A DNA stretch of 64,000 bases from Comamonadaceae bacterium ALPHA2B (lineage in GTDB: Bacteria > Pseudomonadota > Gammaproteobacteria > Burkholderiales > Burkholderiaceae_C): positions 62,001 to 126,000 of the forward strand of contig SCOE01000007.1 of assembly GCA_005503065.1 (NCBI GenBank), in the 5' to 3' direction. Positions 55,920 to 59,006 of this stretch are shown one piece after another (within the stretch, counting starts at the first letter, position 1; each line of letters starts with the position of its first letter). A model generated the notes under the pieces. It was not told the origin of the DNA. It saw only the letters and a list, made by a program, of their open reading frames with translations, and did not search any database. Position numbers and translations under genes: made by a program.

Positions 55920-58900
55920 ATGCTTCCGTTACTTGCGAGTCATACGCTCCAGATGCCCCCTGTCGTGCCGCTTTTTTTTGTTTCTCATGCATCCGACTTC
56001 GAAGATGTCTTGATCTGGCGAGCGCTGTGCAGCGTGCGCAGCGGTTTCTATGTCGACGTGGGTGCTCAGCCCTGCGCGCAATCAGCGACAGAGGGTTTCA
56101 GTGCCTTGGGCTGGCGCGGCGTCAATGTCACCGAGAAGCTCGATGTTTTGCGTGAGCTGGTTCTTGGGCGGCCGCGCGATGTCAATCTGCGCAACCATCT
56201 AGACGCGGGTGCTTGCGATTGCCAAGGCGAGCCACTGTCCGTAGTCCGGCTTGCCGATCTCTGCCGCCTCTATGTGCCTGATGGGCAGGACGTGCACTTT
56301 CTTCGCATTGATGCGCCCGGAAGCGAACCCGCGCTCCTGGGCGCGCATGACTGGACGCGTTGGCGACCCTGGCTTGTTGTCGTCAAGCAGCCTTCGGTGT
56401 TGCGCGGGATCGAGGGCTGGGATCAGGTCCTGCGGTCGGCTTCATATCGGCCTGCATACGCTCATGGGCTCCATCACTTTTGGGTGGATGCTGCGCGTCC
56501 GGAGCTTCTGGCCGCATTCGACGGTCCTCCACGCGTCACGGATCAATTCGTCCCCGCGTCCTGCGAGTCCATGCCGGCGACGATCACGGCACAGCGCGAA
56601 GCGCTCGCCAACGCTGAGCGGCGACTCGGCGCCTGCGAAGATGGCCGCATCGAACCTTGGCGGCGGATCGAGATCTCTGAAACGAGTGCAATCCTCGCCA
56701 GACAGCGCGAACGCGCCACTTCGTCTCGGGCGCACGCGGAAGCTGTCGCGGCTCGCGAAAGCATCGCCGCGTTGCAGGCGCAGCTTGCGGGGTTAGAGCA
56801 CCGGCTGCAAGCCGTGATGGCGTCTGCGTCCTGGCGGTTCACTGCGCCGCTGCGGTCGGTGATCTCTGCGCTGCCGGCACCTGTCCTGCGGCATGTGCGG
56901 CGTGCAGGCAAGGCAACATGGTGGGCGCTAACGCTGTGGCGCATGCCCGCGCGTCTGCAGGCGCGGCGGTCAGCGCGTGCAGCGGACCCGTCAACATCGT
57001 CGGCCGCTGGCTTCGGGCGTGACGAGTCCGAGAGCTCGGAGGGATTGCTGGCCGTGCTCGGTCTTTCCGGTCGGCGCCCGCGCTCAGGGGCGACGCATGG
57101 TGCAGCGCACGGGTTGTGGAAGCCACTGGCCCCGGAGGAGATCGAGGACTCTTGGGCCGCGGCGCGATGGTGCCTCGACCTGCTGAGCGAACGCCCTGAG
57201 CTGCAAAGTCGCTTCGGGCGGCCACTGACCGACGGGCTGGGAGGCCCATTCGCCCAATGGCTCCAGCGGGAGGGTGAGAAGGAGTTCTCGCTCTCGTCAG
57301 CCGCTCTACTGCATATAGCGAAAGCCTTCGAGCAAGATCCTGGCGCACGTCCGCGACGCGTCTTCCTGTTCGACGATTGGCTCAGAGATCGTCTTCCCCA
57401 CGGGCTTTTGCCGGCGGGGAGGGCGGCGCTTCTGTCCTGGATGTTGAACTTAGGCAGGAAGAAGTTCGACCTGCGTCCAGAAGAAATCGTCTGGCTGTTG
57501 CGCGCGGCGGCAGAGCAGCCGGCGCTGGAGTTGATTCGGGCGTACGAGTTCGCACCAACATGGCAGGCCTTGCATCCAGAAGGCCTCACGAATTTTGGCC
57601 GTCAAGCTTTCGTCGATTGGTATCGCCGGACCTATGGTGACGGGGGCGACTGGCTCGAAACGTCGAACTGGCCCCAGGCCGAGCCGGCGTCTCGCCAGAT
57701 CCGGCAGGTGTTTCATGCGCGGGCGGCGTGGCGCAGCGCCCATCCAGCGGCCTTCGATGGTGCGCCGCAGGCCAGGGCATTTGTCGAAGCCCTGCCATCA
57801 TTGCTAGGGCCGTCCGATCAGGTCGTTCTTGACAGGCTACTGGCCTCAACGGGTCACGACGAGTTGGTGCGCGAACTGGCTCGGCCAGGGGTCAACCTGA
57901 TCGGCCACTTCGTGCACCCAAGTGGATTGCGGGTGTCCATCCGTGCCTTGGCCAAGGGCCTGAGATCGCAGGGCTTGCAGTTGTCCCTGCGCGATGTGCG
58001 GACGGACGTCGGTGATGAGGAGGGCCGCCTGCGCTATGCGGGCATGGAAGACTTCGACGTCACGATCATCCACACGCAACCAACACCTTATTTTCCACGT
58101 GCCTACGAGCTATGCGGCCTGCATGCGCGCGAGCCCAGGCCGTACCGCATCGCCTACTGGTACTGGGAGTTCGAGGCCATTCCCGACTCCTGGCTCAACG
58201 CGATCGGCGACATCGACGAGGTTTGGACGGCGACCGAGTTCATCGCTCGCGGATTGCGCGAGAAGCTGCCGCTGCCAGTACGCACCATCTTCCCGGGCGT
58301 GGAACTGGAACCCTATGCGCGCAAGGAGCGCCGCGAATTCGGCCTGCCCGAAGACCATTTCGTCTTCCTGTTCGTATTCCATATGAACAGCGTGATGGAG
58401 CGAAAGAATCCGCTGGGCCTCATCGATGCCTTCAAGGCAGCGTTCCGCGTGGAAGACCGCGCAACGCTGGTGATCAAGACCATGTTCGGCGAGCATCACC
58501 CGTCGCAGATGAAGGACTTGCTCGATGCCGCGGTAGGGAGCAATGTTGTGATCCTCAACGAGGTCTACAACACCGAGACGCTGCATGCCCTGATGGACAC
58601 CTGTGATGCCTATGTATCCCTTCACCGCAGCGAAGGATTGGGGCTCACCATGGCAGAGGCGATGCTCATGGCCAAGCCGGTGATCGCGACACGCTATTCA
58701 GGCAACGTCGATTTCATGGATGACGACAACAGCCTGCTCGTGCCATGCGAAATGGTGACCCTGGGCCGCGATATCGAACTCTACGATGCGAGGCTGAGTT
58801 GGGCCGAGCCATCCCTCTCGCGGGCCGCCGAACTCATGCGAGAGCTGTTCGACGACCAAGCCTGGGCCAAGGCACTCGGCCAGCGCGCCCAGACCGATGC

Positions 58901-59006
58901 GCGTTCGCGGCTGTCGGTGGAAGCTGCGGGCCGCAAGGCGGCGAGCAGGCTCGCAGAGATCAGAGAGACTTTGCGCGCCGCAGGGGCCGACACGGCCGTC
59001 CGGTGA
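55920..59006 (+). CDS. FkbM-like/coiled-coil/GT4 fusion glycosyltransferase
   Basis: About 1028 residues from the ATG at 55920; GTG at 55911 and ATG at 55953 are alternatives. The N-terminus resembles FkbM methyltransferases ([26 protein letters not shown]) but key positions differ: the usual KIDVEG is RIDAPG. An Ala/Glu-rich coiled coil (about 217-300) leads to [14 protein letters not shown], the linker seen in many capsule transferases. Residues about 400-640 are a helical domain I cannot name. Residues about 650-1010 are a GT4 domain with [25 protein letters not shown] and [20 protein letters not shown]. It probably extends a surface polysaccharide at the inner membrane. A related protein begins at 63539. 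Confidence 0.8.

What the first reader, a model, noticed from the sequence alone, without database searches (positions are those of the whole stretch)
55920..59006. Diverged FkbM domain and an unnamed middle domain in a large GT fusion
The N-terminus aligns with FkbM methyltransferases, but the acidic SAM and catalytic positions are replaced (RIDAPG for KIDVEG; VKQPS where the family has Glu-Ala). The domain therefore may bind but not methylate. Between the coiled coil and GT4 domain, residues about 400-640 contain a helical module with [15 protein letters not shown] and [20 protein letters not shown] that I cannot assign, and which recurs in a second protein at 63539.
Basis: partly seen in the sequence, partly recalled or inferred. 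Interest (0 to 1): 0.5.

Follow-up and report, generated by a model that had tools for sequence, protein, structure and literature searches.

The report
Dead methyltransferase on repeat-bearing glycosyltransferase
A large enzyme that probably helps build a bacterial surface sugar chain carries a worn-out methyltransferase at its front and, next to its sugar-transferring part, a block of four similar helical repeats that the libraries searched do not name.

Summary
The 1028-aa protein has a weak FkbM match (25.5 bits; 87-92 in three intact relatives), a long predicted helix, an unassigned module and a GT4 glycosyltransferase. Of 82 FkbM positions invariant in nine intact relatives it has lost 33, among them Glu69, Glu159 and Glu182, with a 29-residue deletion. 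I read the domain as inactive and probably unable to hold SAM. Of 13 FkbM domains aligned, four lack both Glu159 and Glu182 and nine keep both; the tree needs at least two changes.

The middle module is four ~60-aa helical repeats (AlphaFold pLDDT 94.7), seen before GT4 in 65 loci; the second protein at 63539 is such a paralogue. Pfam, NCBIfam and PDB gave nothing beyond what I take as chance.

The order methyltransferase - long helix - GT resembles coiled-coil terminator/polymerases of ABC-exported O-antigens, but all 33 neighbouring Wzt ORFs found lack room for the cap-reading domain known elsewhere. Best reading: a GT4 polymerase part on a repeat scaffold whose methyltransferase became dispensable. 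The repeat's job is inferred, not shown.

The parts
55920..59006 (+). Gene of the finding, 1028 aa: degenerate FkbM - long (coiled-coil-like) helix - linker - four-repeat helical module - GT4
55971..56549 (+). Degenerate FkbM methyltransferase domain (about residues 18-210), with a 29-residue deletion relative to intact relatives
   Evidence: PF05050 25.5 bits; 49 of 82 positions invariant in nine intact relatives kept, 24 changed, 9 deleted; deletion length
56574..56822 (+). Single long predicted helix, residues 219-301, coiled-coil-like
   Evidence: secondary structure of the full-length model, low to middling confidence
56826..56960 (+). Linker with SWRxTAPLR and [13 protein letters not shown] motifs, residues 303-347; similar motifs before the module in the second protein and in several Variovorax relatives; possible membrane-associated helices
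   Evidence: membrane role inferred
57147..57353 (+). Helical repeat R1 (residues 410-478), RPELQSRF...[11 protein letters not shown]
57354..57536 (+). Helical repeat R2 (residues 479-539), [21 protein letters not shown]
57537..57695 (+). Helical repeat R3 (residues 540-592), [23 protein letters not shown]; its Gln is invariant in the 58-row module alignment
57696..57878 (+). Helical repeat R4 (residues 593-653), [22 protein letters not shown]
57888..58949 (+). GT4 glycosyltransferase domain (about residues 657-1010), EGLGLTMAE = EX7E motif present
   Evidence: PF00534 1.8e-13; motif; GT-B matches of the model, best 3oy2_A E 3.8e-16
63539..64000 (+). Start of the paralogue (713 aa, continues outside the window, L003:13540-15681): four repeats + GT4, no FkbM
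54683..55720 (-). gmd, GDP-mannose 4,6-dehydratase, divergent neighbour
   Evidence: TIGR01472 467.8 bits, cut-off 415
62590..63546 (+). fcl, GDP-L-fucose synthase-like
   Evidence: NF047922 444.5 bits, under its cut-off of 500

Best explanation
The protein is a retaining GT4 glycosyltransferase of a GDP-6-deoxyhexose (probably L-fucose type) polysaccharide cluster exported by a Wzm/Wzt ABC transporter. Shown by sequence: a GT4 domain with its EX7E motif, directly preceded by four tandem ~60-aa helical repeats that usually stand before this GT4 subfamily. Inferred: the repeats form a rigid scaffold on the GT4 that positions the growing glycan or partner glycosyltransferases at the membrane. 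The N-terminal FkbM domain descends from a SAM methyltransferase at the far end of a long helix, the layout of coiled-coil terminator/polymerases, but in this lineage it is a non-catalytic remnant. Because these clusters use a Wzt too short to carry a cap-reading carbohydrate-binding domain, a terminal methyl cap would not be needed for export (inferred), which would explain why the domain has decayed or vanished more than once while module and GT4 stayed.
For: GT4. Repeats: all six pairs of repeat profiles align, E 3e-5 to 8e-9, scores 25-42 against column-shuffled maxima 11-20; model pLDDT 94.7; repeat profile finds 4 copies in 53 of 80 proteins, 3 in 13, 2 in 7, 1 in 1, 0 in 6 and none in the 80 shuffled. 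Module-only search of 22 genomes: 33 places, 30 fetched, GT4 in the same frame in 28 of 30. Decay: Glu159 and Glu182 both lost in 4 of 13 FkbM rows, both kept in 9; 10 invariant positions lost in all four against 1.9 expected, 0 of 20,000 shuffles. Tree: degenerate label needs 3 changes, starred branches force 2. No other PF05050 match in the own genome at E 0.01. Wzt: 33 of 33 neighbouring ORFs end within 21 residues of the end of the match to the own 233-aa Wzt. Comparison systems: PMC11231755 (abstract, passages and first part of the Discussion).
Against: Acceptor, sugar and linkage are unknown. Intact FkbM coexists with the same short Wzt (L020, G008, G002; also L064, cut at the locus edge), so a short Wzt alone does not make FkbM useless. 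The diverged FkbM is still an open frame upstream of GT4 and keeps Asp43, Asp157 and Glu162, which a structural or ligand-binding role could explain. I sorted FkbM rows as intact or diverged by eye, partly on the two glutamates, so the 10-position test leans that way. L040's alignment is unsure, L040 and L055 are neighbours in the tree, and the window's own place (89/95, long branch) is not firm, so the four losses are not four shown events. The 65 loci were found through GT4 patterns, so they cannot show that the module needs GT4; two congeners have half a module without GT4.
Confidence: 0.6

Rival explanations
1. The diverged FkbM domain is kept for a non-catalytic job, for example dimerising the protein, capping the long helix, or binding glycan or SAM as a sensor.
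For: 26 of 82 invariant positions are kept in the window protein, L055 and L062 alike, among them VGA, GW.G, VH and RPW; four such copies persist as open frames.
Against: No FkbM match in relatives with similar neighbours (L023; L016-L019, L024, L028, L029, L068); a 29-residue deletion; no confident fold predicted (shallow alignment, no control).
Confidence: 0.25
2. The FkbM domain is still an active methyltransferase with shifted catalytic residues.
For: Motif YVDVGA, Asp157 and Glu162 are retained.
Against: Glu69, Glu159 and Glu182 lost together with the TGLST loop; the last two also lost in three further copies.
Confidence: 0.05
3. The helical module is a protein-protein docking platform that recruits the other glycosyltransferases or Wzm/Wzt, rather than a part that touches the glycan.
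For: Solenoid-like repeats commonly bind proteins (general knowledge); O4/O7 polymerases act as multiprotein complexes around coiled-coil proteins (PMC11231755).
Against: Against Wzm/Wzt as the partner only: modules occur in Methylobacterium, Acidisoma and Planctomycetota loci where no similar Wzm or Wzt was found within the stretch held. Copy number varies.
Confidence: 0.4
4. The module is a divergent TPR-, HEAT- or other known repeat that the profiles miss.
For: All-alpha repeats are hard to classify; weak or missing fold matches do not exclude it (note).
Against: Median spacings 60, 60 and 56 and a shared P..L....F..W motif; no TPR model among the matches of 58 members although TPR models matched the N-terminus of L057; best Foldseek E 2.3.
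Confidence: 0.25

Closest known systems
FkbM methyltransferases (Pfam PF05050)
   Same: Descent: above Pfam cut-off; 40.6% identity over 207 aligned positions to the intact FkbM domain of Variovorax sp. CF079 (L039)
   Different: Three conserved acidic positions and a 29-residue segment are missing
Coiled-coil terminator/polymerases of ABC-exported O-antigens: WbdD, ORF6 of K. pneumoniae O7, WbbB of O12 (PMC11231755: abstract, passages, first part of Discussion; PMC3482155: abstract)
   Same: Order of parts: N-terminal modifying enzyme, long helix, linker, C-terminal GT
   Different: FkbM instead of a kinase/methyltransferase or Kdo transferase; a helical repeat module before GT4; neighbouring Wzt too short for a carbohydrate-binding domain; enzyme part degenerate here
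GT4 retaining glycosyltransferases (GT-B fold)
   Same: Pfam match, EX7E motif, predicted GT-B fold
   Different: Own subfamily with a fused N-terminal repeat module
FkbM-helix proteins of two congeners (G008, G002; L005, L006)
   Same: Same place beside gmd; same FkbM, helix and repeats R1-R2
   Different: FkbM intact there, but R3, R4 and GT4 are missing: the opposite loss

Membership tests
FkbM methyltransferase (PF05050) | Profile match above the curated cut-off | tested here: met
   25.5 bits, cut-off 22.7, best stretch residues 107-177
FkbM methyltransferase (PF05050) | Conserved acidic positions of intact relatives (Glu69, Glu159, Glu182 in L039 numbering) | tested here: not met
   Thr, Pro, Lys in the window protein
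FkbM methyltransferase (PF05050) | SAM-dependent methyl transfer | not testable with these tools
   needs purified protein
GT4 glycosyltransferase | Profile match and EX7E motif | tested here: met
GT4 glycosyltransferase | GT-B fold | tested here: met
   predicted model, Foldseek best 3oy2_A E 3.8e-16, TM-score over the target 0.69
Coiled-coil chain terminator (WbdD / O7 ORF6 type) | Modifying enzyme at the far end of an extended coiled coil, GT or GT recruitment at the other end | tested here: inconclusive
   order of parts seen, but the long helix is predicted with low to middling confidence and its coiled-coil nature was not measured
Coiled-coil chain terminator (WbdD / O7 ORF6 type) | Active terminating enzyme | tested here: not met
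   FkbM degenerate in the window protein, by sequence only
Coiled-coil chain terminator (WbdD / O7 ORF6 type) | Wzt with a C-terminal carbohydrate-binding module | tested here: not met
   own Wzt 233 aa; 33 of 33 neighbouring Wzt ORFs end within 21 residues of the match; a separately encoded module was not excluded
TPR or other known helical repeat | Profile or fold match | tested here: inconclusive
   no consistent Pfam match in 58 members; Foldseek best E 2.3; VIA best Z 2.1 over 401 chains; absence is no proof

The most novel reading that the evidence does not exclude
A 60-residue helical repeat, not named in the libraries searched, forms a rigid glycan-handling or counting arm on one GT4 subfamily across Pseudomonadota, Planctomycetota and Verrucomicrobiota; in the Variovorax-type clusters this polymerase once carried its own methyl terminator on a coiled-coil ruler and has repeatedly lost it, because export through a Wzt without a carbohydrate-binding domain needs no cap: a ruler without a terminator.
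Probability: 0.2. Interest if true: 0.65.

Novelty: new variant of a known kind. Interest (0 to 1): 0.5.

Why it matters
How polymerases of ABC-exported glycans set chain length is known for a few coiled-coil terminators. This family offers a natural series, in one type of cluster, of fusion proteins with an intact, a decaying or no terminator-like domain beside a short Wzt, so the need for that domain can be tested by comparing chain lengths. It also adds a well-predicted helical repeat that the domain libraries searched do not name and that sits beside a large glycosyltransferase family.

Tried and rejected
Wzt hypothesis: I first supposed that intact FkbM would go with a long Wzt (WbdD-like capping) and degenerate FkbM with a short one. 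Rejected: Wzt is short in intact and degenerate clusters alike.

Homology of the module to the NPDV/HYL..G..EGR-type repeats seen in L056, L057, L061, L063, G008 and G002: profile comparison (12 short segments) gave 19% probability for R3 (0 of 60 shuffles as high) and under 1% for R1, R2 and R4. Not supported.

G778: its frame reads by eye as exoribonuclease II, and exoribonuclease 2 chains were also among the weak PDB hits; taken as chance. Phages and viral contigs (short patterns): nothing. Plasmids: only Acidisoma. Fold searches of the module: no PDB match below E 2.3, no viral model below 3.3, VIA best Z 2.1; this does not show a new fold. Weak single repeat hits in 321-aa ORFs of L051, L053 and L054 and in L089 were taken as chance. 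PDB sequence searches with intact FkbM domains found nothing at E 0.01 or 1, so the acidic positions could not be mapped on a solved structure.

Rows dropped: A4 uses 57 of the 59 modules delineated (L018 and L019 left out) plus the window; 6 of the 65 module loci were not delineated by my motif. One search kept the best 80 of 129 relatives, so locus counts are lower bounds; its two patterns lie in GT4. For several loci the open frame's first start is doubtful (L065, L029; L032 begins inside a GT2), so their N-terminal parts are unsure. Three of the 33 places have no locus and were not checked for GT4. A search of Planctomycetota genomes did not run.

Literature, held library only: no paper has FkbM with glycosyltransferase, coiled-coil and O-antigen or FkbM with methyltransferase and pseudoenzyme. 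FkbM with glycosyltransferase and fusion gave 4 papers, FkbM with Variovorax 1, helical repeat with glycosyltransferase, O-antigen and polymerase 1, and one search listed 8 of 128: listings only, not read. Passages were read in PMC3584063 and PMC3684757. Subscription papers are mostly not held, so no claim of absence from print is made.

Full report
What is there. The open frame at 55911-59006 (+) holds a 1028-aa protein from the ATG at 55920. Pfam sees a weak FkbM match at residues 107-177 (25.5 bits, cut-off 22.7) and a GT4 domain near residues 802-940; NCBIfam gives only sub-threshold, mostly GT4-type models. Residues 400-640 match no Pfam or NCBIfam model and no PDB sequence below E 0.03. 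Over 58 aligned modules the best-supported Pfam family is Porin_OmpG (5 of 58 members, best E 0.001), which I take as chance in an all-helical region; no NCBIfam model matches more than one member; the PDB profile search gives nothing below 0.05; 4 modules tested had no PHROGs match. The full-length model (36 rows) shows a poorly predicted N-terminus (most of residues 1-162 below pLDDT 50; 8 rows cover it), one long helix at 219-301, helices at 312-379, and module plus GT4 mostly at pLDDT 90 or more from residue 400 on.

The second protein. The window lies in G000 contig C77. The frame that starts at 63539 continues past the window as a 713-aa protein, 46.5% identical to the finding's protein over 703 aa of linker, module and GT4, without FkbM.

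The module is a tandem repeat. A search with module+GT4 of four proteins found 129 relatives; the best 80 were kept as 75 loci. In 65 of the 75 the module is found by BLAST in the same frame as GT4. A 58-row module alignment (A4) gave a model with mean pLDDT 94.7 and pTM 0.89, all helical. Four segments, R1 410-478, R2 479-539, R3 540-592, R4 593-653, align with each other as profiles in all six pairs (probability 72-96, E 3e-5 to 8e-9; scores 25-42 against maxima of 11-20 for 30 column shuffles each). A pooled repeat profile finds 4 copies in 53 of 80 proteins, 3 in 13, 2 in 7, 1 in 1 and 0 in 6 (the 80 are 75 locus proteins plus window, own paralogue, two congeners and Acidisoma), spaced 60, 60 and 56 residues (medians over the 53), and none in the same 80 shuffled. 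Among 3032 other ORFs of the loci it finds five further proteins strongly (L016, L023, L034, L039 with four, L072 with three), three weakly with two (L077, L078, L088) and three with one weak hit that I take as chance. Because the profile was built from most of these modules, the counts show copy number, not independent discovery.

Does it go with GT4? The two patterns lie in GT4, so those loci cannot answer. A module-only profile search of 22 genomes found 33 places, 1-3 per genome; of the 30 fetched, 28 have GT4 in the same frame and 2, both congeners, do not. Most of these genomes were chosen because they carry module+GT4, so extra copies are the informative part. Module-only searches elsewhere found GT4 behind the module in the own pair, in Acidisoma and in G676, and not in the two congeners.

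Spread. Named hosts include Variovorax, Xenophilus, Burkholderia, Rhizobium tropici, Belnapia, Rhodopila, Methylobacterium, Acidisoma, a Sphingomonas bin, Planctomycetota and one Spartobacteria (Verrucomicrobiota) bin. It is patchy: 3 of 15 genomes of the own genus (own genome counted), 1 of 369 of the class with the single-protein query (the own genome), 1 of 289 of the class of G676 (G676 itself), and 3 of 398 of the phylum (own genome, G676, and a chance hit). Four Clostridia or Chloroflexi loci (L085, L087, L089, L090) match by GT4 only.

The FkbM domain. By BLAST with three FkbM queries, 9 of the 65 module loci have an FkbM-like N-terminus: six look intact (L020, L022, L027, L038, L039, L064) and three diverged (L040, L055, L062). 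Pfam scores are 87.3, 89.0 and 91.5 bits for L022, L027 and L039, 48.1 for L055 and 25.5 for the window. Nine intact domains (those six, two congeners, and a separate Acidisoma protein) share 82 invariant positions; the window keeps 49, changes 24 and lacks 9; L055 keeps 70, L062 34 and L040 26. Over all 13 rows, Glu159 (of DVEG) and Glu182 (of VVVEA), numbered as in L039, are both lost in 4 and both kept in 9; Glu69 is lost in the window, L062 and L040 but kept in L055; Asp43, Asp157 and Glu162 are kept in the window. Ten invariant positions are lost in all four against 1.9 expected (0 of 20,000 shuffles; 10 against 2.8 for the window, L055 and L062 alone). Two cautions: I called rows intact or diverged by eye, partly on these glutamates, and the shuffle treats positions as independent although deletions are contiguous. 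The ten are A91, G97, T107, G108, L109, T111, V132, V158, E159 and E182. What each glutamate does in FkbM enzymes I could not check, as no solved relative was found; roles are recalled from class I methyltransferases in general.

History. In a 68-row tree of module+GT4 the window protein groups with L023 (no FkbM) and L027+L039 (intact) at 89/95, not starred, on a long branch flagged as unsure; L062, L040 and L055 lie in another group. The degenerate label needs 3 changes and starred branches force 2; rows without FkbM were not counted. Since a broken domain is unlikely to be rebuilt, I read this as at least two losses from an intact ancestor; intact copies in both groups and in L038 fit. Other relatives show no FkbM match at all (L016-L019, L024, L028, L029, L068); of these I saw the helix remnant, SWR.TAPLR-like and WW.TPW linker motifs in L016, L017, L024, L028 and L029. 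In two congeners (G008, G002) the reverse happened: FkbM is intact, but the protein stops after R1-R2, without GT4. The own genome has no other PF05050 match at E 0.01.

Neighbourhood. gmd (TIGR01472), a GDP-fucose synthase-like gene (NF047922, 444.5 bits, under its cut-off of 500) and manC (TIGR01479) lie in the cluster, with Wzt and Wzm best matched by the galactan export models NF050108 and NF050109, both below their cut-offs. Of 65 module loci, 31 carry a Wzt and 31 a Wzm over 60% identical to the own ones, 30 ManC, 31 Gmd and 8 Fcl, within at most 7 kb on each side. All 33 Wzt ORFs (31 plus those of G008 and G002; that of L064 is cut at the locus edge, that of L034 is a short frame) end within 21 residues of the end of the match. 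For K. pneumoniae, PMC11231755 says that a coiled-coil protein carries the terminator and that in all of the terminated examples a carbohydrate-binding module on Wzt reads the cap (passages); it also names ABC-exported glycans without such termination control, O1 and the H. influenzae type b capsule (Discussion part 1). WbdD is the prototype (PMC3482155, abstract). The architecture here is alike, but no cap reader was found on Wzt, and the terminator-like enzyme is degenerate in the finding's protein.

Mechanism and limits. I conclude that the protein works as a GT4 glycosyltransferase on a repeat scaffold in a membrane-bound polymerase complex, with a dead FkbM relic. Shown: GT4 motif, repeats, loss pattern, neighbours. 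Inferred: catalysis, scaffold role, sugar (6-deoxyhexose), membrane association, and the link between short Wzt and FkbM loss. Against that link: intact FkbM also sits beside a short Wzt (L020, G008, G002), so intact copies there may methylate the chain for another purpose. Whether the repeat belongs to a known superfamily remains open: Foldseek and VIA gave no convincing match, which is not proof of a new fold.

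Noticed in passing
L014:10282-12033 (-) and L015:5034-6833 (-): In two congeners a GT4 gene near wzt is preceded by NPDV/HYL..G..EGR-type repeats instead of the R-type module; the two repeat kinds do not match as profiles.
   Followed up: partly
L005:229-1911, L006 (G008, G002): FkbM-helix proteins keep an intact FkbM and repeats R1-R2 but stop there, without GT4: the opposite loss to the window protein.
   Followed up: partly
L003:15729-17297; L016-L070: Wzt and Wzm of the own cluster are about 78-93% identical to those of Variovorax-type loci (Gmd up to 96%), closer than the glycosyltransferases, which suggests horizontal transfer of the locus.
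   Followed up: partly
L067:6437-8698 (+): A Spartobacteria module-GT4 protein begins with a phycobilisome-linker-like (PF00427, 6e-15) and DUF4214 region.
   Followed up: no
L042:3752-8875, L060: In Belnapia rosea (Pfam) and one bin (BLAST) the N-terminal enzyme is Methyltransf_24-like instead of FkbM, before GT2-GT2-module-GT4: a swap of the terminator-like part.
   Followed up: no
window 53612-54670 (-) and 48907-50043 (+): Two further genes near the cluster, by eye methyltransferase-like with helical N-termini, have no NCBIfam match at E 1e-5.
   Followed up: no
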